Positions 28,227-57,246 of a stretch of DNA of 64,000 nucleotides are shown here, piece after piece. The stretch's first letter is position 1; each line of letters begins with the position of its first letter. The notes under the pieces are model-generated. The model had not been told where the DNA came from. It did no database searches and was given only the letters and a program-made list of their open reading frames with translations. Origin of the DNA: Nitrososphaerota archaeon (GTDB lineage Archaea; Thermoproteota; Nitrososphaeria; Nitrososphaerales; Gagatemarchaeaceae). The translations under genes and the position numbers were made by a program. The DNA lies in the NCBI GenBank assembly GCA_027887005.1, contig JAPCJI010000005.1, positions 1 to 64,000 on the forward strand. The letters run 5' to 3'.

Positions 28227-29327
28227 TCACCGGGCCTCCTCCAGGAATTCGGAGAGTGGCTTTTGGCCCCCGACGTCGCTGAGTTCGGAGACGCGGATGC
28301 CGACTCGGCGGAAGTCCTTGTCCACCGAAGATGCCAGGTCTCTGAAGAGGGCCAGCCCCGAATCTTTGATCGTGGCCGCGTCGCTGATGGGTGTGTCAAA
28401 CGTCTTGCTCTTCGTCTTGGTGGAAAGGTCGGTCAGGATGCCGATGGCTGATAGCGTTCTGAAGGATTTGCCGGACGCCGAAAGCTTTCCCTGTATGTGC
28501 TCGACCCCCTGCGCCAGCTGACCGAAGGCCTCCTCTGCGTCTCGGGTGTCTCTTTTGAGGGTGACGATGCGGCTGAACTGCGTGGGCTGCTGGTCGACCA
28601 GGACTGGGTCCGCGTCTGTGCCCGTTGCAGCGGCAAGCAAGTATGAAGCAAGCTTCCTTCCGAGGCGTCGGTCGATTTCGGAGGGGTTGGCCCTCGCCAA
28701 GTCCCCCACAGTCTTCACCCCGACCTCGGCGAGGGAGGCCGCAGTCTTCGGCCCCACTCCGTAGAGTTTGGTCACTTTGAGTGGGTTGAGAAAAGTCTCG
28801 GTCGACTCGGGCGACACCATCGTAAGGCCGTCAGGCTTGGCGAAGTCTGACCCGACCTTGGCGACCACCTTACTCCTACCGAGGCCGATGGAGCAGGTCA
28901 GGTGCTCGCTCTGATAGAGGACGCTCTTGATTCCTTTGGCAAGTTGGGTCGCGGCCGAGTAGTCTCCTTCAGTGGATGCTGAGACGTCGAAGAAGGCCTC
29001 GTCGATTCCCGTCTTCTCGAGCAGGTCCACGCGCTCGGCGACCAGCTGCATGACTCGGTCGGAGACGGCCTCATATTTCTCGTGCTGCATCCTGATGACC
29101 ACTGGGTCGTGGCCCTGAAGCTTCGCCTTGGCGGCCGCAATCGGCATCCCCGACCCTACGCCCAACGCCCGAGCCTTGTAGTTCGAAGTGCTGACGACCC
29201 CGCTCTCCTCGGTCCTTCCGGAGAAGACACATACGATGACGGGTTTGTCCTTGATTGAGGGGTTTTCAACCTCCTCGACCTGGGCGTAGAAGTAGTCGAG
29301 GTCGATGTGGCCGATGACCCGGTTCAA
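28227..29327 (-). CDS. dinB: Y-family DNA polymerase IV
   Basis: This 366-aa DinB has HIDLDYFYAQVEE (first catalytic Asp region), SNYKARALGVGSGMPI, the GIDEAFFDVS catalytic Asp-Glu motif and helix-hairpin-helix GVGPKTAASLAEVGVKTVGDLA, plus a little-finger domain. It performs error-prone bypass of damaged bases. TTG 29327 lies about 29 nt after a CTTAAATTC box. A SWIM zinc-finger gene follows in the same operon. Confidence 0.95.
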   Translation of the reverse strand: MNRVIGHIDLDYFYAQVEEVENPSIKDKPVIVCVFSGRTEESGVVSTSNYKARALGVGSGMPIAAAKAKLQGHDPVVIRMQHEKYEAVSDRVMQLVAERVDLLEKTGIDEAFFDVSASTEGDYSAATQLAKGIKSVLYQSEHLTCSIGLGRSKVVAKVGSDFAKPDGLTMVSPESTETFLNPLKVTKLYGVGPKTAASLAEVGVKTVGDLARANPSEIDRRLGRKLASYLLAAATGTDADPVLVDQQPTQFSRIVTLKRDTRDAEEAFGQLAQGVEHIQGKLSASGKSFRTLSAIGILTDLSTKTKSKTFDTPISDAATIKDSGLALFRDLASSVDKDFRRVGIRVSELSDVGGQKPLSEFLEEAR

Positions 29328-35425: not shown

Positions 35426-35811
35426 ATGGGAGTCCTGAAGGCGCGGGAGTTGACATTCCTCAAGGCCCATGAGGTCTGCAGGCTCGCCACGGCCTCCGAG
35501 GACGCGAAGCCGCATGTGGTCCCCGTGGTCTACGCCGTTGATGGGGAGAACATCATAATCGCCATAGACTACAAGACGAAGAAGCTGAAGAACCTCAGGG
35601 AGAACCCAAGGTCGCCTTGGTCGTGGACGAATACCGGCCTAACAGCGGCTTGATGGTCGAGGGGGACTGCGAGCTCTCCGAGCGGGGGAAGGAATACCTC
35701 CGCCTCCTTCAGATTCTCTTCGACAGGTTCGTCTTCTACAGGAGGAATCCCTGGGGTGAAGGCGAGTCTCCGATACTCAAGGTCAAACCCACCAAAGCCG
35801 TCATGTGGTAG
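35426..35811 (+). pseudogene. PNPOx-like flavin/F420 protein, frameshifted
   Basis: The first frame (35426 to about 35612) encodes EVCRLATASEDAKPHVVPVVYAVDG, the start of a split-barrel pyridoxamine-phosphate-oxidase-like fold. From about 35612 the homologous sequence continues in another frame: VALVVDEY then RPNSGLMVEGDCEL and FYRRNPWGEGESPILKVKPTKAVMW, ending at 35811. A single missing base near 35608-35613 (AACCCAAGGTC) explains it. It may be a true pseudogene or an assembly error. Intact length would be about 128 aa. Confidence 0.8.
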
Positions 35812-35817
35812 GCCGGG

Positions 35818-38073
35818 TCAGACCAGCGGCACGCTTCGGTGGGCTTCGTAGAGCGAATGCAGTCCCTCGGCCGACAGGCGCGGGTCGAAGGGCTCCAGGA
35901 CCGACGAGCACGTCTCTGCCAGGAGCTCGATGTAGCGCTTCGAGTCGTAGGCGCTTTCATCCTTCAGGATGTCCACGGGGGTCGCCCGCTTCGAGTCTCG
36001 GCCCCCGTAGTCGGTGACGACATAGCGTATCCCCTCCCCGGCGTGGAGCTGGACCCCTTCCCCGACCAGCTGATTGATGGCCGCGTGCTGGACTGTCATA
36101 GTAGTGTATTCCTCCGGGCCCTTCGATAGATTGGTCGTGAAGGCCAGCTCCGACGCGGGGGTCTCGTGGCGCTCGAGGGCCTCGGCGTGCCGGAGGAAGA
36201 TGTTGACGCACTCGGAGGTCTTGGTCCTGACCTCCCTTTTCGAGTCGGCCTTGGCAAGGACCCTCAGGATCTCCATCTGGCACTTCTTGAGCGCCAGCGG
36301 CGTGTCGTGGCGCCTCGCCTCGATGCCCCTGACCTTCAGCTCTCCGTCCTGGTAGGCCCCGAAGTACCTGTTGAGGACGGGCACGTCCGCGTCGACCTTC
36401 GAAGGGAGGAAGGTCACCCACTTGTAGATCCCCTCGAAGGACATGGCGAAGCCGGTCTCTGACTCGATTTCGGACTTCAGCTCGAGATACGCGTCTCGCC
36501 CCGCCCTCTCCTTCCTGACCCATAGGGAGTCGACGATGCCGTGTATCACCTCGAAGCCCCGCCGCTCCGCGAGCCTGGCCGCGTCGAGGAGGACCTTCCT
36601 GTCCCAGGCGCAGACCGCGATGTGGGCGTCTATGCGGCCGAACTTCGCGTTGTTGAATCCCAGGTAGCCGAAGGTAGTCACCCCCAGCCACTTGAGGGCG
36701 GCCTGGCGGGCATTGTACCTGTCGTAGTCGGTCCCCTTCGAGTTCCTCTTCAGCTCCTTGTAGTGGAGCCTCTTCTCCACTATGATCTTGATCGCCGTGG
36801 GGACTAGCCCTGTCCTTCTCTCGCAGACGTTCCAGCCGAGTTCCGGCACCCGGTTCTTGGAGTCGGGGCAGCACCGGCACTTCACTGTCTCCGCGGAGAT
36901 GTTCTTCCTGAACATGATGTTCGGATACAAAGCGTGGAAGTCCAGCTCCCCGACGCCTTCGTGGACCCCCATCTTCGGCTCGAAGATGAAGCCCCCGCGG
37001 TCCGCGACCAGGAGCTCGTTCCTGTCCTTGAAGTGCTCCACCAGAGTCGGCTTCCAGGGGACGAGTAGGTCGGTCCTGTAGGCGTGATAGAACTGGAGGC
37101 TGGAGAGAGCCTTCCCTATGCTTGCCCTGCTGGACGTCTGCAGCGGCATCCTGCATGTCCTGCTCAGCTCGAAGAGGCCCTCCAGCCCGGCCTCCGAGTA
37201 GGTGAACGAGGTGTTGGCGTCGATGTGTATCCTGCCGTAGAGCTTCATGGCCGAAGGCTTGTAGTGGATCCTGCCGTAGCTGAAGTAGGAGGTGCCCCCC
37301 TTCGAAGGGACCCTCAGGACTGCGCCGTCCCTGTCGAGGGTCAGCCTGTCCGCGATTCTGTTGGCCTCTGCCCGTCTGACCAGGTAGGGGAGGAGGAAGG
37401 TGTCCCCGTCGTTGGTGATGACAAAATCCGGGTCGGTCTCCTTGATGGTCCGGACCAGCTCCAGCAGCTTGTCCGCCTCGCTGCCCCCGTCGATCGTGAT
37501 CCTCCCTGCGTCGCTCTGGAGGGATATGGCCGCGATCCGGTCGGTGAAGCGGGCGAGCTTCCCCTCCTTCTCGATTTCCACGTCCACCTTCACCTTCCTC
37601 AGGTTCGGGACGGTGTAGTCGTAGGCCCAGACGTCGTCTTTGGGGTCCCACTCCAGGGTGTCCCCCGTCTGCGTCACCTCGCAGCAGGCGAGGGGGAAGA
37701 TGTCGCGCTCGTAGAGGTAGCTCTGGTTGGGTGGGACGTCGGCGTTGTAGAGCCTGTAGGTGCCGAAGGGCCCCAGCCGCTCGATCCTCCCGGCTATCTG
37801 CTGGGCCTTCCTGGCGTCCCTGACCCTGGCCTCGACGACTTCCGATTTCTCGGCGTCGGTGACCCTTTCGCGCTTCTGGGCCGTCCTAGTCCATGCGAGG
37901 TCGGCGCCGACTATCCTCAGGGGGGCGCTCAGGTCGGACATCTGGTCGGTGGCGATGAATATCGAGGGGGACCAGTGGTCAACCAGCCTTACGGCCTGGC
38001 CGTCTTCTCGCTTGAGCCAGACGACCATCTCCCCAGGGTCGCCCGGGTAGGCGTCAAGTATCCAGCCCCTCAT
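35818..38073 (-). CDS. Divergent B-family DNA polymerase (PolB2-like)
   Basis: This 751-aa polymerase keeps motif A as LDFHALYPNI (Asp 378) and one Asp of motif C in HGIVDSLW (Asp 515, replacing YGDTDS). Motif B reads KWLGVTTFGYLGF instead of KxxxNSxYG. The exonuclease is damaged: Exo I DVE is present (164-166), but Exo II reads DGDTFLLPYL with Leu for the catalytic Asp, and Exo III is degenerate. These features match the archaeal PolB2/Dpo2 group, linked to damage-induced, error-prone synthesis. It is last in a four-gene operon with a RecA-like protein. Confidence 0.88.
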   Translation of the reverse strand: MRGWILDAYPGDPGEMVVWLKREDGQAVRLVDHWSPSIFIATDQMSDLSAPLRIVGADLAWTRTAQKRERVTDAEKSEVVEARVRDARKAQQIAGRIERLGPFGTYRLYNADVPPNQSYLYERDIFPLACCEVTQTGDTLEWDPKDDVWAYDYTVPNLRKVKVDVEIEKEGKLARFTDRIAAISLQSDAGRITIDGGSEADKLLELVRTIKETDPDFVITNDGDTFLLPYLVRRAEANRIADRLTLDRDGAVLRVPSKGGTSYFSYGRIHYKPSAMKLYGRIHIDANTSFTYSEAGLEGLFELSRTCRMPLQTSSRASIGKALSSLQFYHAYRTDLLVPWKPTLVEHFKDRNELLVADRGGFIFEPKMGVHEGVGELDFHALYPNIMFRKNISAETVKCRCCPDSKNRVPELGWNVCERRTGLVPTAIKIIVEKRLHYKELKRNSKGTDYDRYNARQAALKWLGVTTFGYLGFNNAKFGRIDAHIAVCAWDRKVLLDAARLAERRGFEVIHGIVDSLWVRKERAGRDAYLELKSEIESETGFAMSFEGIYKWVTFLPSKVDADVPVLNRYFGAYQDGELKVRGIEARRHDTPLALKKCQMEILRVLAKADSKREVRTKTSECVNIFLRHAEALERHETPASELAFTTNLSKGPEEYTTMTVQHAAINQLVGEGVQLHAGEGIRYVVTDYGGRDSKRATPVDILKDESAYDSKRYIELLAETCSSVLEPFDPRLSAEGLHSLYEAHRSVPLV

Positions 38074-38320
38074 CCTTCTCTGCCTTCAGCTTCTCGACCT
38101 CCCCGGCAAGCCAGACGATGGTCTTGTGCTGGGTCAGCAGGATGCTCATGAAGAGCGCCTCGCTGGGGAAGGGGGACTCCCTCGCCTGCATGGCAGGGAA
38201 GTACTCGTAGCAGAGCCTCAGCATCTCCTTGAAGAGCTCCCTGTCCTCCGCCCTGAGGGCGTCCGCAAAGTGCCCCCAGCTGTCCAGCTCTTCTATGATC
38301 TCGGCGTCGGTGAGGGTCAT
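38054..38320 (-). CDS. Small helical protein in the PolB2-like operon (88 aa)
   Basis: This 88-aa, acidic, all-helical protein (TDAEIIEELDSWGHFADALRAEDRELF, then a C-terminal coiled-coil-like AGEVEKLKAEKDEG) has its ATG overlapping the upstream stop as ATGA, and its own end overlaps the polymerase start by 20 nt. Tight coupling implies stoichiometric production with the polymerase. I do not recognise a named domain; a polymerase accessory or bridging role is inferred from position. Confidence 0.8.
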   Translation of the reverse strand: MTLTDAEIIEELDSWGHFADALRAEDRELFKEMLRLCYEYFPAMQARESPFPSEALFMSILLTQHKTIVWLAGEVEKLKAEKDEGLDT

Positions 38321-38586
38321 CGCCCCGCCTCCGTCCGCCTGGTTTCGGCTATCGTCCCCAGGGTCCGCGCCAGCATCCTGTAGTGGTGGAAGACCAGGGC
38401 CATGGCCATCCCCTCGAACCTCGAGGTCCTGACGGCGGCGGAGGAGGCCGACGTGTAGAGCCTGGCAGAGTTGAGCATCTGGTCGAAGGCCCCCCTGTCC
38501 CTCTTCGGCAGGGCCTTCCTGAAGGCCTTCCATTCCGTGACCTCCTGAGCTTCGGCTATCCTGAACGACGGGATGGTCCGGCCCAT
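38317..38586 (-). CDS. Small helical protein in the PolB2-like operon (89 aa)
   Basis: This 89-aa basic helical protein (RDRGAFDQMLNSARLYTSASSAAVR, then FEGMAMALVFHHYRMLARTLGTI) lies between the RecA-like gene (TGATG overlap) and the 88-aa gene (ATGA overlap). It could pair with its acidic partner to form a complex. No named family; role inferred only from the operon. Confidence 0.8.
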   Translation of the reverse strand: MGRTIPSFRIAEAQEVTEWKAFRKALPKRDRGAFDQMLNSARLYTSASSAAVRTSRFEGMAMALVFHHYRMLARTLGTIAETRRTEAGR

Positions 38587-39530
38587 CAGCTCCCCGACCT
38601 CGCTCTGAAAGGCCTCAGGAGCTGCTTGAGCTTGAACGTGGAGGTTGCAGCAGGCTTGCTCGGGTGCTTCAGGAGCTCCGCCTCTACGACGCCCTTGGAC
38701 GATGACATGTGGACCGAGGTGTCGGCCCAGGAGGCGACCATGTCGTCGTATTTGTTGGGCGAAGCCAGGGTGGTAATGACCAGCGCGTTCTTCTTCGCTC
38801 GCCTGATCCCGTCCTCGACCGCGCTCAGGAGACGCCTCGCTTCCCTCTCGTCCAGCTCCGGTTCGTTGAATGTGCCGAGCAGGTCGGCGACCACCACGAG
38901 CCGGGCGCCGTAGTCTTCAGCGGCGCGGACCAGGTGCTTCGAGATGAGGTCCGCGAGTTGGTACATCGTGAAGACGCGGCAGGTGGCCACCCTTCTCATC
39001 GCCGTGGTGGGTCTTAGGCCGCGCTGCTTGACGAAGGAGGAGAAGAGGTACGGGTCGGAGCGGTTCCCCCCGTCGACGAACAGGACGCTGGAATCGAGGC
39101 CGCCCGCCTCCAGGGGAAGCTGGGCCCTGAACGCCGCGAGCTCTGCCACGACCGACGCCGGGCCTCCGCTCAGCACGATCAGCCGTTCCTGGGTGAACGG
39201 CCTCAGCAGCGAATCGAGGCGCGGGAAGCCCAGAGAGAAGTGCGGGAATGATGACGCGGGCCGGAACGGGGTGCTCTTCCTTTCGAAAGCGGTCGTCTTG
39301 GTCAGGTAGATGTCAGACCATTCGTCGGGCACCGGGGCCAGCCTGCATTCGATGTTGCCCTCGAGCGGGCGGCCGCATCCGAGGCACCTGCCGCTCAGTG
39401 AGTCGATGGTCTCGCTCGTGGGCCCGAGGTCCCGCCTCACCCGCAGGACGCAGCTACAGCTCAGGCAGTAGTAGACGAAGCGCTCTTTGCCGCTTCCCTG
39501 TTGCTCGTACAGATAATGAAGTCTGGACAT
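38586..39530 (-). CDS. RecA/RadA-like ATPase homologue lacking Walker A, with zinc ribbon
   Basis: This 314-aa protein has an N-terminal zinc ribbon (CLSCSCV and CLGCG, about 22-55) and a RecA-fold core with VLFVDGGNRSDPYLF and LVVVADLLGTF (Walker B-like). The P-loop position reads LSGGPASVVAEL, with no GK(T/S), so ATP hydrolysis is unlikely. It opens the four-gene operon with the PolB2-like polymerase. ATG 39530 is about 32 nt after a GTTAAATCC box. By analogy with bacterial ImuA it may recruit the polymerase (inference). Confidence 0.85.
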   Translation of the reverse strand: MSRLHYLYEQQGSGKERFVYYCLSCSCVLRVRRDLGPTSETIDSLSGRCLGCGRPLEGNIECRLAPVPDEWSDIYLTKTTAFERKSTPFRPASSFPHFSLGFPRLDSLLRPFTQERLIVLSGGPASVVAELAAFRAQLPLEAGGLDSSVLFVDGGNRSDPYLFSSFVKQRGLRPTTAMRRVATCRVFTMYQLADLISKHLVRAAEDYGARLVVVADLLGTFNEPELDEREARRLLSAVEDGIRRAKKNALVITTLASPNKYDDMVASWADTSVHMSSSKGVVEAELLKHPSKPAATSTFKLKQLLRPFRARSGS

Positions 39531-39658
39531 TGTGACGAAGGCCGAAGGTTCTCAGAGGATTTAACGCGGGATGTCTGATAGATGGATTTGTCTGAGAGGG
39601 AGACGGCCGAAAGTGTTCGGGTGATGGTTATTAGTTTCTGTCAGTCCGAACGTGGTGA

Positions 39659-46646: not shown

Positions 46647-48125
46647 ATGTCCGAGTCGAAGGCCGTCGCCAGGGTTCTGGCGTCAGGCTACATCTTGGAC
46701 GCGAAGGCGTTTGACATGATCAATCAGATTCCGTCCGACTTCGACGTCGAAGGCATCATCCAGAAACTGCTCGAGCAGAAAGCCGGGTCGGGGGGCGAGG
46801 GCAAAGTCATCACGGAGAGCGACGTCGCCAAGGTCATCCCCGAGGGCCTGAGCCATGGGGGGCGGGAGGACCAGGCTGTCCTTGGCGAGTTCGCGGACCT
46901 GGAAGTCATCTCGGACCCGACCCTGGCCATAGCTCCTGCTGAAGCGTCTGAGGGGTTCAACCGGCTCTTTCGGGACAGGTACCAGAGGCTCTACTCAATC
47001 CTCCGCGGCAGGATGGACACCAAGACGAGCGCCAGCGTCTCCACGACGAAGGGCCTCCCGCCGAACAAGAAGGTCAAGGTCGCAGGACTCCTGATGGAGC
47101 GCAGCAGCAGGCGGGGAAGCGTCGAGTTGAAGGTGGACGACCCGTCCGGGACGATGCGTGTGGTCTGCCAAGACCCGCTGGCCGAGAGGTCTGCTTTGGA
47201 GGCGCCCCTGGACAGCATGGTCGTGGTCGAGGTGTCGCGCGGCAGGACGGGCCAGCTCTACGCCCACTCGGTCGTCCTCCCCGACGTCCCAAACAGGAAG
47301 CCAATGTCTTCGTCCCACAGAGTCTACGCCGTCCTCCTCTCCGACCTACACATCGGGAGCAGGATGTTCCTGGGAGATGACTTCCGGCGCTTCCTGCAGT
47401 GGATGAACGGCGGGTTGGGGGACAAGGACATAGTGGACCGTGTGAAGTATGTGGTGATCGCAGGAGACCTGGTCGATGGGGTAGGCGTCTATCCTGGGCA
47501 GGAGTTCCAGCTGGCGGAGAAGGACCCCAAGAAGCAGTATGAGATGGCAGCCGAGCTCCTGAAGCAGATTCCAGGGGACGTCCAGATCGTGGTCTCGCCG
47601 GGGAACCACGACGCCGTCAGGCAGGCCCTGCCCCAGCCGGCCGTGTCGGTGGACCTCGCGGAATCGCTGTACGGAATGGACAACGTCAGGTGGGTGGGCG
47701 ACCCTGCATACATCAAGTTGCACGGTGTCATGTTCCTGGTATACCATGGCAAGAGCCTAGACGACATCATAGCGACCACCCCCGACCTCGCCTATGATCG
47801 GCCGACTGATGCGATGAAGCTCCTGCTGCGGTCCAGACATCTGGCGCCAACCTATGGCAAGCGGACGGCTCTGTCCCCTGAGCTCCGCGACTTCATGGTC
47901 ATAGACCCGGTGCCAGACGTCCTGCACTCAGGACATGTCCACACCTTCGGAGAGCTGAACTACAGGGGGACGATGCTAGTCAACTCCGGGACGTGGCAGG
48001 GGCAGACTAACTTCCAATCGAACATGGGCCTCGAGCCGACACCGAGCGTAATTCCCGTCCTCGACCTGTCAACGGTGAAAGCGATCAGACGGAACTTCGG
48101 CGCGGCGGGCTTCCCAGCTTCCTAA
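46647..48125 (+). CDS. polB (DP1): DNA polymerase D small subunit (DP1)
   Basis: This 492-aa DP1 has an N-terminal helical domain, an OB fold and a C-terminal calcineurin-like phosphodiesterase with all metal motifs: LLSDLHIGS, AGDLVDG, SPGNHDAVR, HSGHVHTFGEL. It supplies 3'-5' proofreading for the archaeal replicase PolD. ATG 46647 is about 27 nt from a CTATATAG box that overlaps the end of the mutase gene. It converges on the Orc1/Cdc6 gene with 4-nt overlap. Confidence 0.95.
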   Translation: MSESKAVARVLASGYILDAKAFDMINQIPSDFDVEGIIQKLLEQKAGSGGEGKVITESDVAKVIPEGLSHGGREDQAVLGEFADLEVISDPTLAIAPAEASEGFNRLFRDRYQRLYSILRGRMDTKTSASVSTTKGLPPNKKVKVAGLLMERSSRRGSVELKVDDPSGTMRVVCQDPLAERSALEAPLDSMVVVEVSRGRTGQLYAHSVVLPDVPNRKPMSSSHRVYAVLLSDLHIGSRMFLGDDFRRFLQWMNGGLGDKDIVDRVKYVVIAGDLVDGVGVYPGQEFQLAEKDPKKQYEMAAELLKQIPGDVQIVVSPGNHDAVRQALPQPAVSVDLAESLYGMDNVRWVGDPAYIKLHGVMFLVYHGKSLDDIIATTPDLAYDRPTDAMKLLLRSRHLAPTYGKRTALSPELRDFMVIDPVPDVLHSGHVHTFGELNYRGTMLVNSGTWQGQTNFQSNMGLEPTPSVIPVLDLSTVKAIRRNFGAAGFPAS

Positions 48126-49300
48126 CTTGCCTTGCCGAACGTGGTGTCTTCTGAGAGTATCTTGTCCAGGGCCTTAGTGTCTATCAGCAACTGGATGCGC
48201 TTGGTCCGCCCTCGCCTTCCCTTGCTGACCACCGAGGCCTCGATCAAGCCCAGCAGATCCAGCTCGGCGAGTATCCCGCTGATCCGCCTTTGCGTCAGCG
48301 TCTCGAGGCCTGCCTTCTTGCAGGTGTTGCTGTACATCTGGTAGAGCTCTCCGGTGTTGGTCCCGCTTTTGAACTTCGAGACTGCGAGGAGGACCGCCTT
48401 GGTCTGGACCGGCAGCGAGTGGATTGCGTCTTCGACCCTGTCGTGTTCCATCTTATCTGAGGCCCTGCGGATGCAGTCGTCGTCAATCTGCTTGAGGCCT
48501 TCTCTTTCTGCCACCTCTCCTGCTATCCTCAGGAGGTCTATTGCCCGCCTCGCGTCCCCGTGCTCTGAGCCTGCCATGGCTGCGCAGAGGTTGATTGCAG
48601 CTGCCGATGCGGCCGAAGGCCTGAAAGCCATCTTCGCCCTCTCGGTTAGTATCTCCCTGAGCTCCTCAACGGTGTAGGGTGGGAAGACCAGCTCCTCTTC
48701 GCTCAGGCTACTCAGGACCCGTGGGTCCAGGCCCTCCTTGAACTTCAGGTCGTTAGATATTCCGACCAGAGAAAGGAACCCGGGAGTGAGCTTCTCGCTC
48801 GATCGGGTGAACTCGTAGAGTATCCCGTCGCCGAAGGTCTTGACGAGGTAGTCGATTTCATCCATGACCAGGACCACGTGCGATTTCTTTGACTGGATTT
48901 CTTTGAAGACCCGTCCGACGACCTCCCCGATTGAAAGGCCCGTGAATGGAATCGGGACATCGACGGCCTGACCGAGCTCGGCCAGAGCCCGATATTCGGT
49001 GTTGGCCAGCCTGGTGTTGACGTAAGCCACCACAAGTGAGCCTCCTCCGGATTCCTGTTTGAGCTTGGAAAGGACGTACCTGGCAACCGCCGTCTTTCCC
49101 GTTCCCGTCTTTCCGTAGAGAAGTAGGTTGGATGGCTTCGATCCGTGCAGGACTGGGGCAAGGACCTCGGCCACGGCTTTGGTCTGGGAGTCTCGAAACG
49201 GTAGCTTCTGGGGGATGAACTCAGGGCTGAGCGCGTTCCGGTCGACGAAAAGCGCCTTCCCTTCTTTCGCTCTCCGAAAGATCTCGTCTATGCCTGACAA
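48122..49300 (-). CDS. orc1/cdc6: Orc1/Cdc6 replication initiator
   Basis: This 392-aa AAA+ initiator has Walker A LLYGKTGTGKTAV near 60, Walker B VLVMDEIDYL, sensor 1 GISNDLKF, sensor 2 within GDARRAIDLLRIA and a C-terminal winged helix (LTQRRISGILAELDLLGLIEA). It binds ORB repeats and recruits MCM. TTG 49300 sits at the edge of a 500-bp intergenic region with ORB-like repeats, so it faces its own origin. Confidence 0.96.
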   Translation of the reverse strand: MSGIDEIFRRAKEGKALFVDRNALSPEFIPQKLPFRDSQTKAVAEVLAPVLHGSKPSNLLLYGKTGTGKTAVARYVLSKLKQESGGGSLVVAYVNTRLANTEYRALAELGQAVDVPIPFTGLSIGEVVGRVFKEIQSKKSHVVLVMDEIDYLVKTFGDGILYEFTRSSEKLTPGFLSLVGISNDLKFKEGLDPRVLSSLSEEELVFPPYTVEELREILTERAKMAFRPSAASAAAINLCAAMAGSEHGDARRAIDLLRIAGEVAEREGLKQIDDDCIRRASDKMEHDRVEDAIHSLPVQTKAVLLAVSKFKSGTNTGELYQMYSNTCKKAGLETLTQRRISGILAELDLLGLIEASVVSKGRRGRTKRIQLLIDTKALDKILSEDTTFGKAS

Positions 49301-49522
49301 GGAAGAACAGTGGAAACACTGGTTAGATAAGCCTACCCCGCCGCCCCTTGGTTTCTCCTGTTTCCGCTCTATGTCTCTCGGGGGCGAAAGAGAATCATAC
49401 GCTAGTATAATGTCCCGTACTTGGTATGCGATTTTGATGGGATATGCCTTGGGGTCTACAACAAGAGACGATGGCTTTGCGATGAACGAACCAAGAGGTC
49501 AGACCAAGAGGGGGAGAGGGCG

Positions 49523-49542
49523 CAGTGGAAGTATAGGGGGCC
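49523..49542 (+). repeat. ORB-like element
   Basis: CAGTGGAAG followed by a G-run after a 4-bp spacer. It aligns with the reverse complement of the elements at 49596 and 49655, giving inverted orientation across the origin. Confidence 0.65.
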
Positions 49543-49595
49543 GGGGGACACGGTGAAGACCGGTGAACCATCTAAGGATCCTAGCGAGAGAATAC

Positions 49596-49617
49596 ACCCC
49601 AATGTTTCCAGTGGAGC
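49596..49617 (-). repeat. ORB-like element
   Basis: Read leftward this is a TCCACTGGAAA core followed by a GGGGT run, close to the archaeal ORB consensus. It matches the element at 49655-49676 at 18 of 22 positions. Confidence 0.75.
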
Positions 49618-49654
49618 CCGTCCAGCCCCCAAGGGCTCAACGGGCACAATTCCG

Positions 49655-49676
49655 ACCCCATTGCTTCCACTGGAAC
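49655..49676 (-). repeat. ORB-like element
   Basis: Read leftward this is TTCCAGTGGAAGC, then AATGGGGT, the best match to the ORB consensus in the window (dyad core TTCCA-x-TGGAA plus G-string). Confidence 0.8.
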
Positions 49677-49801
49677 CAGTATCGGGCCCTCTCGTTTTTA
49701 TGCACTGTGAAGCCAGGTGAACGCGCAAAACGGTATCAACGCATGGTCAAACTATCCTACTGGCCTGTTCACAAGTTCACACCACTAGCAGATAAAACAC
49801 G

Positions 49802-53766: not shown

Positions 53767-56700
53767 ATGTCTTTCTCCGCCGAAGTCGCATGGGAGCGCG
53801 CCCGCAAGCTTGCACCATTCCCGGCGAGCCTTGATTCTTACTACCACGACATCCTCTCACAGTACGCATCCATGCAAGAGACGGCCTCCAAAGCAAGGGC
53901 CATGGGACTGGACCCGGTCGACAACATCGAGAGCAAGACGGTGTTCGACTTGGCCGACAGGGTCAACCAGATGCTCCGGCTGGACCAGTTCGAAGGCCTG
54001 GTCGACAGGCTGAGAGAACTCCTCCACACGGTGTCGAAGGAACGGGCGGCGCTCACCATCTCGCAGGAGATAGCACTGGGCAAGTTCGGCGCACTCGACA
54101 GGCAGGAAGCGCTGAGCTACGGGGTCCGGGCAGGCCTTGCGGTAATGACCGACGGGGTCACGGTGGCGCCCCTCGAGGGCATCTCCGGCGTCACGATAAA
54201 ACAGAACGACGACAACAGCGACTACGTCTCGGTCTCATATGCGGGCCCGATGCGCTCTGCAGGTGGCACGGAAGCCGCCTTCTCTCTCGTCATAGCGGAC
54301 GCGACTGGAAAGAAGCTCGGGTTGTCAAACTACAGGGCGAGGCAGGAGGAGATCGACCGCTTCGCAGAGGAGCTCAGGATCTACGAGAGGGAGGTCGGCA
54401 ACTTCCAGTACAAGGTGACGGACGACGACATCAGAAGGGCCATCGGCAACCTTCCGGTGGAAATCGACGGACTCGAAACAGACCCCATCGAAGTTGTAGT
54501 CCACAGGAACCTGAAGCGGGTCTCCACCGACAGGCTCAGGGGAGGGGCGCTCAGGGTCCTGAACGACGGCGTCATAGGCCGAGCCCACAAGCTCGCGAAG
54601 AAGCTAGGGGCCCTCAACATCTCGGGCTGGGAGTGGCTAACGGAGATCAAGGGTGGGACCCAGCAGACCAGCAATGAGACGGAACAGGGTGGGGCCCACT
54701 TCGAGGAGGTCATTTCAGGGAGGGCGGTCCTCTCGAGGCCCCGGACCAGGGGAGGCTTCAGGCTCAGATATGGACGGTCCATGAACACCGGGCTCTCCAC
54801 TCTGGGGATTCACCCGGCCGTGGCCGTATTGCTCGACTATCCGGTCGTCTGCGGCACCCAGGTGAAGGTCGACCTTCCAGGAAAAGCAGCTACCATCGCA
54901 TTCGTCGATTCGATCGAGGGCCCGACGGTGCTCTTCAAGGACGGCAGCATACGACGAATCTCTTCAATCCTCGACGCAGAGCAGGGACGGGAGAACCTAG
55001 AGAAGATCATCGACCTCGGGGACGTCCTGATCAGCTACGGCGACTTCCTAGAGAACAACAAGAACCTACCTCCCTCGCCTTACGTTTCAGAATGGTGGGT
55101 CCAGGACTTCGCCCAGGCCCTCGCGACCACACCGGGTGCCACAGAGAGACTAGGAGCTGCCGGAGTTGCTTCGGAAAGGACGGCCCAGCTCAGCTTAGGC
55201 ATAGGCCTGACCCCAACCGCCGCCGAGGCACTGGCGATATCGAAAGCACTAGGGATACCACTTCATCCAACGTACACTCCCAGATTCGACAGGGTCAGCC
55301 CCGCAGATTTGGCCGAGGTCCGTCAGAATAGCAGGCTGGAGGGACGTGACGTTCGGGTCGACATCACGTTGCATCACGTCGAATGGGTCCTCCGGAATTG
55401 CCTCGTCGAACACAAGATCGAGGGAGATTCCGCACTGCTGACGGGCGACGCCGCGTTGATTCTGACTTCTCTCCTCAGACTCGAAGACAAAACAGAGGTT
55501 CCGCTCCCCTCGGAATCGGCAGACTTCGTGAAAGCCCTCTCAGGCATCTCAATCGGTAAGCAGGACACAACCACTATCGGCGTCAGAGTGGGAAGGCCGG
55601 AGAAGGCAATGGTGAGAAAGATGAAGCCCCCGGTCCACGCACTCTTTCCGGTCGGATTCTCGGGCGGAGCGTACAGAGACGTAATCACAGCATCAAAACG
55701 CGGACCTATCGACGTCGAAGTCGTAAACAAGTTCTGCCCCGAGTGCCGTCAAAGGCGCCTCTCCTCCAAGTGCGAGATCTGCGGTACGATGACAATCCCC
55801 TTCAAAGCCTGTCCACGAGACGGGACTACAACCTCTGACGAGGTCTGCCCCAACTGCAGAGCCAAGACCATCCCCTACTCTCACATGCAGCTCGACCTTC
55901 ACGCGAAGCTCGAGGGAATAAGGGCCAGAATCCCGTTCGAGTCCGCCAGGCGCGTCAAGGGAGTCAAAGGCCTCACCAGCGGGTCCAAGACCCCCGAGCC
56001 GCTCGAGAAGGGCATCATAAGAAGCAGGCACAACGTGTTCGTCTACAAGGACGGGACCCTCAGGATCGACGTGACCAACGCTCCCCTGACTCACTTCAGG
56101 CCACGCGACATAAAATCCGACCCCGAGGCCCTCGTCAGGCTTGGCTATGAGAGGGACGCCGGGGGGGCGCCCGTCGAGAAGGACGACCAGATCCTAGAGC
56201 TGAAGCCGCAGGACATCATAGTCCCGGTGGACATCGCCGAAGACCTCGTCAGGATGGCCCAGTTCGTGGACGACGAGCTCCAGAACATTTACGGCCTTCC
56301 ACCCTACTACAACGTCCAGGGCCCGTCCGACCTGAGAGGCAAGATACTCATCGGGCTCGCCCCCCACACATCGGTGGGCGTGGTCGGAAGGGTCATCGGC
56401 TTCTCCTCGACCCAGGTCTGTTTCGCCAACCCCTACTGGCATTCGGCCAAGAGGCGGGACTGCGACGGGGACGGCGACTCCCTCCTGCTTCTGATGGACG
56501 TCCTCCTCAACTTCTCCCTCGAATACATCCCTCACCAGATCGGTGGGCTCATGGACACCCCGCTTCTCGTGCAGCCGATTCTGATCCCGTCCGAAGTTGA
56601 CGAGCAGGCCCACAACTTCGACATCGCCTCCTTCTATCCGCGCGAGTTCTACGAGAAGACCCAGGGAGCGCCGACGGCCGCCTCGGTGGAGCCACTGGTC

Positions 56701-57246
56701 GAGCGCATCGGGTCGAGGCTGGACAGCGAGACCCAGTTCTACGGCTACGGCTTCACCCACTCGACGAGCGCCCTGACGGTCAAACGTTCCAGGGGGTCGT
56801 ACTCCACACTGCGGACTCTGAACGAGAAGATATCGAAGCAGATCGAAGTCGCGTCCAAGGTGGAGGCCGTCTCGACCAAGGAGGTCGTCGAGTCGATCAT
56901 CAAGACCCACCTGATCAGGGACATAATGGGGAACGCGAAGAAGTACGCCACCCAGTCGTTCAAGTGCAGGAAGTGCGGCACCACCATGCGTCGCCCCCCT
57001 CTTTCCCACAGCTGCCCGAACTGCAGAGGGGAAATCAGAGGCACTCTCACCAGGGCCTCGGTGGAGAAGTACCGGGCCATTGCCAACAGGCTGGCGAACG
57101 AATACGACGTCGACCCCTACCTGAAGAACAGACTGGACATGCTAGGTAGGGAGCTGGACCAGCTCCTTTCCGGCGAGAGGAAGGCCGACCAGCTCGAGCT
57201 GACCGATTTCCTGAAACCGGTCCTAGCGGAAAAAGTAAGCCGGTGA
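53767..57246 (+). CDS. polC (DP2): DNA polymerase D large subunit (DP2)
   Basis: This 1159-aa DP2 is the catalytic subunit of PolD. The catalytic motif RRDCDGDGDSLLLLMD is near residue 897-912 (Asp pair; most homologues read DGDED). Zinc modules include CPECR/CEICG/CPRDG/CPNCR around 655-695 and CRKCG/CPNCR near 1065-1085. No intein interrupts it, unlike many euryarchaeal copies. ATG 53767 is about 28 nt after a CTTAAGAC box. Together with DP1 7 kb away it makes a complete PolD. Confidence 0.97.
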   Translation: MSFSAEVAWERARKLAPFPASLDSYYHDILSQYASMQETASKARAMGLDPVDNIESKTVFDLADRVNQMLRLDQFEGLVDRLRELLHTVSKERAALTISQEIALGKFGALDRQEALSYGVRAGLAVMTDGVTVAPLEGISGVTIKQNDDNSDYVSVSYAGPMRSAGGTEAAFSLVIADATGKKLGLSNYRARQEEIDRFAEELRIYEREVGNFQYKVTDDDIRRAIGNLPVEIDGLETDPIEVVVHRNLKRVSTDRLRGGALRVLNDGVIGRAHKLAKKLGALNISGWEWLTEIKGGTQQTSNETEQGGAHFEEVISGRAVLSRPRTRGGFRLRYGRSMNTGLSTLGIHPAVAVLLDYPVVCGTQVKVDLPGKAATIAFVDSIEGPTVLFKDGSIRRISSILDAEQGRENLEKIIDLGDVLISYGDFLENNKNLPPSPYVSEWWVQDFAQALATTPGATERLGAAGVASERTAQLSLGIGLTPTAAEALAISKALGIPLHPTYTPRFDRVSPADLAEVRQNSRLEGRDVRVDITLHHVEWVLRNCLVEHKIEGDSALLTGDAALILTSLLRLEDKTEVPLPSESADFVKALSGISIGKQDTTTIGVRVGRPEKAMVRKMKPPVHALFPVGFSGGAYRDVITASKRGPIDVEVVNKFCPECRQRRLSSKCEICGTMTIPFKACPRDGTTTSDEVCPNCRAKTIPYSHMQLDLHAKLEGIRARIPFESARRVKGVKGLTSGSKTPEPLEKGIIRSRHNVFVYKDGTLRIDVTNAPLTHFRPRDIKSDPEALVRLGYERDAGGAPVEKDDQILELKPQDIIVPVDIAEDLVRMAQFVDDELQNIYGLPPYYNVQGPSDLRGKILIGLAPHTSVGVVGRVIGFSSTQVCFANPYWHSAKRRDCDGDGDSLLLLMDVLLNFSLEYIPHQIGGLMDTPLLVQPILIPSEVDEQAHNFDIASFYPREFYEKTQGAPTAASVEPLVERIGSRLDSETQFYGYGFTHSTSALTVKRSRGSYSTLRTLNEKISKQIEVASKVEAVSTKEVVESIIKTHLIRDIMGNAKKYATQSFKCRKCGTTMRRPPLSHSCPNCRGEIRGTLTRASVEKYRAIANRLANEYDVDPYLKNRLDMLGRELDQLLSGERKADQLELTDFLKPVLAEKVSR

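What the first reader, a model, noticed from the sequence alone, without database searches (positions are those of the whole stretch)
35818..39530. Four-gene PolB2-like cassette: candidate archaeal mutasome
Seen: four overlapping genes (TGATG, ATGA and a 20-nt overlap) encode a zinc-ribbon RecA-fold protein without a P-loop Lys, two small helical proteins of opposite charge, and a B-family polymerase with altered motif B and C and a broken Exo II site. Known: archaeal PolB2 (Dpo2 in Sulfolobales) has disrupted motifs and is damage-inducible; bacterial ImuA-ImuB-DnaE2 mutasomes pair a RecA-like protein with an error-prone polymerase. Inferred: these four act as one translesion machine, with the RecA-like protein as an adaptor.
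Basis: partly seen in the sequence, partly recalled or inferred. Interest (0 to 1): 0.8.

Follow-up and report, generated by a model that had tools for sequence, protein, structure and literature searches.

The report
Archaeal PolB2 mutasome with split PPB2
The four genes are a real member of an archaeal error-prone DNA-copying machine that was already described from computer models in 2025, and here its promoter shares a DNA control element with recombination, helicase, replication-initiator and cell-division genes, which points to an SOS-like damage response in a group of soil archaea.

Summary
In detail: four overlapping minus-strand genes encode an inactive RadA-like protein with an N-terminal four-cysteine ribbon, two small helical proteins and a PolB2 polymerase. 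It is the PolB2 mutasome (iRadA + PPB2 + PolB2) modelled in PMC11791011, in its known PPB2-duplicated form. The closer known parallel is Pol V rather than ImuA-ImuB-DnaE2.

Tests here: the polymerase falls with PolB2, apart from PolB1 and PolB3. The order iRadA-PPB2a-PPB2b-PolB2 recurs in 32 loci of the order. One ancient duplication gave PPB2a (MGRT arm) and PPB2b (no MGRT arm). The two are fused into one protein in at least 12 genomes, which suggests a hetero-assembly. "Opposite charge" holds only in the window's genus.

What I did not find in the held literature is a promoter element, YACTTTCR-N5-CYCYC, upstream of the operon. The same element precedes radA, an Lhr-type helicase, a second orc1/cdc6, sepF and a small zinc protein in related genomes (84 hits against 17 for the reversed control in 16 genomes), at fixed distances from a TATA-like box. 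Its ACTTTC core fits the Sulfolobales damage element ANTTTC bound by Orc1-2. Damage induction itself is untested.

The parts
38586..39530 (-). iRadA: RadA/Rad51-fold protein without a Walker A Lys and with an N-terminal four-Cys ribbon (C22xxC25...C49xxC52)
   Evidence: weak RadA/Rad51 hits; alignment; Zn ribbon in 27 of 45 iRadA rows; model matches RadA/RAD51 in PDB, E 4.8e-15
38317..38586 (-). PPB2a: small helical partner of PolB2 (arCOG07300 family) with the MGRTIPSFR N-terminal arm
   Evidence: MGRT motif as in PMC11791011; named haloarchaeal counterpart MGRMNPTFRR
38054..38320 (-). PPB2b: paralogue of PPB2a lacking the MGRT arm; three predicted helices
   Evidence: single ancient duplication, both clades supported; direct BLASTP against PPB2a, E 5e-6; model; fused to PPB2a elsewhere
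35818..38073 (-). PolB2-group B-family DNA polymerase; motif C HGIVDS (no first Asp), broken Exo II, D358-R359 motif
39598..39615 (-). promoter element CACTTTCGGCCGTCTCCC (YACTTTCR-N5-CYCYC), 68-85 nt upstream of the iRadA start
   Evidence: (octamer invariant in 13 of 13 loci at -79 to -88)
39559..39564 (-). TATA-like TTAAAT, 29-34 nt upstream of the iRadA start
   Evidence: TATA-like box at -29 to -35 in all 13 loci

Best explanation
The four genes are one translationally coupled operon for a PolB2 mutasome. PolB2 is a B-family translesion/mismatch-extending polymerase without proofreading. iRadA is an inactive Rad51-fold adaptor that docks on PolB2 in the way Rad51 subunits dock on each other. 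PPB2 is a small helical scaffold whose MGRT arm reaches towards the active site (published models; not re-run here). In this order of archaea PPB2 duplicated once: PPB2a kept the arm and PPB2b lost it. The best reading is an obligate PPB2a-PPB2b hetero-assembly (inferred) that gives the complex one arm by design. In the window's genus the operon is read from a promoter with the element YACTTTCR-N5-CYCYC. radA, an Lhr-type helicase, a second Orc1/Cdc6, SepF and a small zinc protein share it. The simplest account is one DNA-damage regulon, probably controlled by the second Orc1, as Orc1-2 does in Sulfolobales (inferred). Shown here: gene structure, families, conservation, phylogeny, fusions, and the shared element with fixed spacing. 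Inferred: complex formation in this organism, lesion bypass, damage induction and the identity of the regulator.
For: Families and order. Tree: PolB2 apart from PolB1/PolB3 at 99/96 support. Named PolB2 relatives on haloarchaeal plasmids cover 95% of the protein at about 32% identity, one with a short MGRM protein directly upstream. PPB2a and PPB2b are each one clade (99/95 and 99/87). They are fused in 12 genomes. All four genes are under purifying selection. Where PolB2 sits elsewhere, iRadA, PPB2a and PPB2b stay together. Element: 84 hits vs 17 control in 16 family genomes, no enrichment in the Nitrosopumilaceae-like family f2; 51 sites fall upstream of six gene families with TATA offsets near 20, 29 or 49 nt. 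ANTTTC is bound by Orc1-2 in Sulfolobales, and Dpo2 induction depends on Orc1-2 (PMC9738581).
Against: No complex was modelled or measured here. The PPB2b model is of moderate confidence (pLDDT 75.6) and has no PDB match. No expression data exist for this lineage in what I could search. The element was checked within one family; close relatives outside it (f4, f2) lack it upstream of their PolB2 operons. Sulfolobales do not, to my knowledge, induce radA or lhr, so the regulon contents differ. An N-terminal fusion fixes PPB2a:PPB2b at 1:1, which is awkward for a plain trimer.
Confidence: 0.77

Rival explanations
1. The cassette is a PolB2 mutasome, but PPB2a alone forms the working homotrimer and PPB2b is a separate regulator or an assembly chaperone.
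For: PMC11791011 found homotrimers and mixed trimers of duplicated PPB2s equally confident, and stresses the copy with the arm. PPB2-like orphan genes exist elsewhere in family f4 genomes and one stands under the same promoter element (L248).
Against: PPB2b is as conserved as PPB2a, always adjacent, and fused to PPB2a in at least 12 genomes.
Confidence: 0.2
2. PolB2 and iRadA are catalytically dead and the complex controls replication initiation or fork restart rather than synthesising past lesions.
For: iRadA lacks ATPase residues and PolB2 lacks the first Asp of motif C. Makarova 2014 proposed inactivated enzymes and a replication role (PMC4104785). The operon lies 9-17 kb from an orc1/polD locus in several genomes of the genus.
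Against: Sulfolobus Dpo2 with the same HxxxD motif C is an active extender polymerase required for targeted mutagenesis (PMC8764526, PMC7390963). Motif A D378 and D515 are invariant.
Confidence: 0.1
3. The shared promoter element is a general core-promoter or growth-phase element, not a damage element, and the PolB2 operon is simply constitutive.
For: sepF and orc1 are also cell-cycle genes, so the element could be a replication/division timing signal. No expression data were available.
Against: In the window's genome the strict element occurs only 7 times, four of them before the PolB2 operon, radA, lhr and orc1b. Its core matches ANTTTC (PMC9738581), and mutasome plus recombinase plus helicase is a damage-type set.
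Confidence: 0.3

Closest known systems
PolB2 mutasome (PolB2 + iRadA + PPB2/arCOG07300), PMC11791011 and PMC4104785
   Same: Same three protein families, same gene order iRadA-PPB2-PolB2, MGRT arm, HxxxD motif C, inactive ATPase and exonuclease, and the described PPB2 duplication with a single MGRT copy.
   Different: Here PPB2 is split into two deep paralogues (fused to each other in some genomes), iRadA carries an N-terminal four-Cys ribbon, and a lineage-specific promoter element is present. The ribbon and the PPB2a-PPB2b fusion are not mentioned in the main text I read; its figures and supplements were not readable here.
Sulfolobales Dpo2 and its Orc1-2/ANTTTC damage regulon (PMC9738581, PMC7390963, PMC8764526)
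   Same: Same polymerase group; ANTTTC core present upstream of both an orc1 paralogue and the PolB2 operon.
   Different: Extended bipartite element (ACTTTC plus a CYCYC half), and radA, an Lhr-type helicase and sepF as targets. Regulator not identified and induction not shown.
E. coli Pol V (UmuD'2C-RecA)
   Same: Multi-subunit translesion polymerase using a RecA/Rad51 protein and a small subunit with an N-terminal arm (comparison drawn in PMC11791011).
   Different: Y-family polymerase, active RecA, unrelated small subunit.
Bacterial ImuA-ImuB-DnaE2
   Different: C-family polymerase, Y-family-like ImuB, no PPB2; the window's polymerase is B-family and its small subunits matched no described family in Pfam or NCBIfam.

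Membership tests
PolB2 mutasome | Polymerase branches with PolB2, not PolB1 or PolB3 | tested here: met
   PolB2 clade separated at 99/96, with PolB1 (1s5j) and PolB3 (5mdn, 4fm2) references outside; about 32% to named haloarchaeal type B polymerases over 95% of the length
PolB2 mutasome | Motif C without first Asp (HxxxD) and decayed exonuclease | tested here: met
   HGIVDS; Exo II Asp is Leu227; Exo I DVE remains in this copy but is not conserved
PolB2 mutasome | Adjacent RadA homologue with inactivated ATPase (iRadA) | tested here: met
PolB2 mutasome | Adjacent small helical PPB2 with MGRT arm (Arg3, Arg9) | tested here: met
   PPB2a begins MGRTIPSFR
PolB2 mutasome | In duplicated operons only one PPB2 has MGRT | tested here: met
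PolB2 mutasome | D(K/R) motif in the loop before the palm | tested here: met
   D358-R359; D358 invariant in the 10-row alignment; equivalence by position is inferred
PolB2 mutasome | Physical heteropentamer; PPB2 trimer | not testable with these tools
PolB2 mutasome | Sliding-clamp motif at iRadA or PolB2 C-terminus | tested here: inconclusive
   only degenerate candidates seen by eye in window iRadA KQLLRPFR and PolB2 AEGLHSLY; no profile search run
Orc1-2 damage regulon (Sulfolobales type) | ANTTTC in promoters of an orc1 paralogue and PolB2 | tested here: met
Orc1-2 damage regulon (Sulfolobales type) | Orc1-2 binds the element; genes induced by damage | not testable with these tools
   no expression or binding data
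ImuA-ImuB-DnaE2 | C-family DnaE2 polymerase and ImuB | tested here: not met
   polymerase is B-family; no ImuB-like gene in the four-gene operon

The most novel reading that the evidence does not exclude
These archaea have an SOS-like DNA-damage regulon built around an Orc1/Cdc6 paralogue that controls its own gene, a PolB2 mutasome, the RadA recombinase, an Lhr-type helicase and the division protein SepF through one bipartite promoter element; it is related to, but broader than, the Sulfolobales Orc1-2 circuit.
Probability: 0.5. Interest if true: 0.82.

Novelty: new variant of a known kind. Interest (0 to 1): 0.6.

Why it matters
Archaea are not known to have a LexA-RecA SOS system, and to my knowledge a damage circuit that controls PolB2 has been worked out only in Sulfolobales. 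If the shared element is a damage element, a second major archaeal lineage would couple error-prone polymerase, recombinase, helicase and cell division under one switch, as bacterial SOS does. That gives a short list of genes to test. The PPB2a-PPB2b split and fusions also constrain how the mutasome is built, since one arm-bearing and one armless subunit are made in fixed proportion.

Tried and rejected
(1) Novel system: rejected after finding PMC11791011 and PMC4104785. (2) Opposite charge as a rule: rejected outside the genus. (3) In-frame stops reported for some PolB2 matches: in the one case compared the match runs past the gene's normal end; dropped. (4) Pattern CACTTTCG-N{30,55}-TTAAA in the own genome gave only the operon itself; the correct grouping appeared only after allowing other TATA spacings. 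(5) Element as an order-wide feature: not supported. (6) Octamer alone in the window is at chance (2 found, 2.1 expected); significance comes from conservation and from the full element. (7) PPB2b fold search in PDB: nothing, model too weak. (8) The origin-linked orc1 in the window was first suspected to carry the element; a single CTTTCG there is not conserved.
Full report
Check of the observation. The organism is a 1.6-Mb assembly; its nearest named relatives are MAGs labelled Nitrososphaerales or Thaumarchaeota. The polymerase is full length, with an intact motif A, a motif C of HGIVDS and an Exo II site lacking its Asp. The RecA-like protein has no usable P-loop and carries four cysteines at its N-terminus. 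Pfam and NCBIfam see only weak RadA/Rad51 similarity. A model from a shallow alignment (mean pLDDT 68; much of the RecA core 70-90) matches RadA/RAD51 structures with E about 5e-15.

What it is. The literature search found PMC11791011, which describes the same three families as a predicted PolB2 mutasome, renames arCOG07300 as PPB2, and reports operons with two PPB2 genes of which only one has the MGRT arm. The window's two small proteins fit exactly: the first starts MGRTIPSFR and the second starts MTLTDAEII. The older comparative study PMC4104785 already linked the three genes. Named relatives on haloarchaeal plasmids confirm the assignment; in Halorientalis pHOS100 the polymerase is preceded by a 111-aa protein starting MGRMNPTFRR.

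Conservation. A search of 300 genomes of the class, followed by fetched neighbourhoods, gave 32 loci with iRadA, PPB2a, PPB2b and PolB2 in that order and orientation, spread over several families of the order. A tree of the polymerase domain separates PolB2 from PolB1 and PolB3 at 99/96, with the four-gene group a clade at 100/99. A PPB2 tree puts all PPB2a in one clade (99/95) and all PPB2b in another (99/87), so one old duplication explains them. dN/dS is well below 1 for every gene in all close pairs where dS was not saturated.

PPB2a and PPB2b act together. In at least 12 genomes of family f4 the two are fused into one protein of about 190-220 aa with two PPB2 repeats, of which only the first has the arm, MGR(T/S)IPSFR in nearly all (L073; L141-L145, L148-L151 and L158; L085 is cut by its contig end and L144 reads MGGPVSSFR). 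In genus g23 of that family PolB2 has moved away, but iRadA, PPB2a and PPB2b stay adjacent (L152-L155). I infer a hetero-assembly. The published trimer model with a single inserted arm offers a reason: subunits whose arm is not used can lose it. The exact stoichiometry is open, since a fusion supplies equal numbers.

The promoter. Upstream regions of 13 loci from the window's genus average 53% identity, yet share an invariant CACTTTCG at -79 to -88 and a TATA-like box at -29 to -35. Shuffled sequences share at most 4 bases. The same sequence, extended to YACTTTCR-N5-CYCYC, stands before the second orc1/cdc6 gene, and a genome-wide search added radA, an Lhr-type DEXH helicase, SepF and a small zinc-finger-like protein. 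Over 16 genomes of the family there are 84 hits against 17 for the reversed pattern; no enrichment is seen in the large family f2. Fifty-one sites fall upstream of the six gene families, and within each family the distance from element to TATA-like box is nearly constant: about 49 nt (orc1b, PolB2 operon, zinc protein), 29 nt (radA, helicase) or 20 nt (sepF). These roughly ten-base steps suggest helical phasing, although only three distinct values are involved. In the more distant family f17 a similar element precedes a NurA-domain protein and a conserved protein of about 100 aa of unknown function.

Reading of the regulon. In Sulfolobales, Orc1-2 binds ANTTTC in its own promoter, and induction of Dpo2 (PolB2) depends on Orc1-2 (PMC9738581). 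ACTTTC fits ANTTTC. A chance match of a conserved octamer to this hexamer on either strand is roughly 0.6% by my estimate, so the link is suggestive, not proof. The set of genes (recombinase, mutasome, helicase, initiator paralogue, division protein) is what an SOS-like response would contain. I found no paper in the held library on such a regulon in this phylum. Damage induction and the identity of the regulator are untested.

Mechanism, with status. (1) One operon with coupled translation: sequence-based. (2) PolB2-iRadA-PPB2 complex: published models, not re-run here. (3) PPB2a arm at the active site, PPB2b as armless partner: inferred. (4) Lesion bypass as an extender: established for Sulfolobus Dpo2 (PMC8764526, PMC7390963), transferred by homology. 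Two Y-family polymerases are present in the genome as possible inserters. (5) Damage induction: inferred from the element.

Verdict. The cassette is a known kind of machine in a duplicated-PPB2 variant. The regulon-type promoter and the PPB2a-PPB2b fusions are the additions.

Noticed in passing
L006:5989-9867 (MAG A_CRE_07); G261 contigs C10/C13 (L058, L059): PolB2 interrupted by an intein with a LAGLIDADG homing endonuclease inside motif B (GVT|C...HN|CFGYLG); a closely similar intein sits at contig ends in a second genome.
   Followed up: partly
L232, L259, L267, L280 (radA) and L294 (orc1b): Intein-like insertions at the P-loop of RadA (seen in L232; the others inferred from interrupted matches) and of the second Orc1 in several relatives, so three genes that share the promoter element carry inteins.
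   Followed up: no
L099/L100 (IMG/VR contigs) and L182 (KF114880.1, Leptospira phage vB_LinZ_10-LE1): A compact iRadA-PPB2(MGRT)-PolB2 cassette followed by a SRAP gene on the IMG/VR contigs (L099); Leptospira LE1-type phages carry the same PolB2 at 63-73% identity.
   Followed up: partly
window 46647-49800: Likely replication origin: PolD small subunit (46647-48125), orc1/cdc6 (48122-49300) and ORB-like TTTCCACTG repeats upstream; PolD large subunit at 53767-57246. The PolB2 operon lies 9-17 kb from this orc1 in several genomes of the genus.
   Followed up: partly
window 28227-29327: A Y-family polymerase (DinB/Dpo4 type) about 6.5 kb from PolB2; a second copy lies on another contig.
   Followed up: no
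window 35426-35811: Two overlapping short ORFs just past PolB2 look like one frameshifted gene (pseudogene or assembly error).
   Followed up: no
L248 (G199:C15) and many family f4 genomes: Orphan PPB2-like small proteins away from any PolB2, up to about 15 hits in one genome; one stands under the same promoter element.
   Followed up: partly
L168-L171: A second PolB2 type with canonical DTD motif C coexists with the HxxxD type in some Nitrososphaeraceae-like genomes, with a PPB2b-like gene next to it in some.
   Followed up: partly
L303, L306, L310, L313, L315, L316, L317, L319 (family f17): A conserved protein of about 100 aa of unknown family sits directly behind the ACTTTC-type element in eight genomes.
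   Followed up: no
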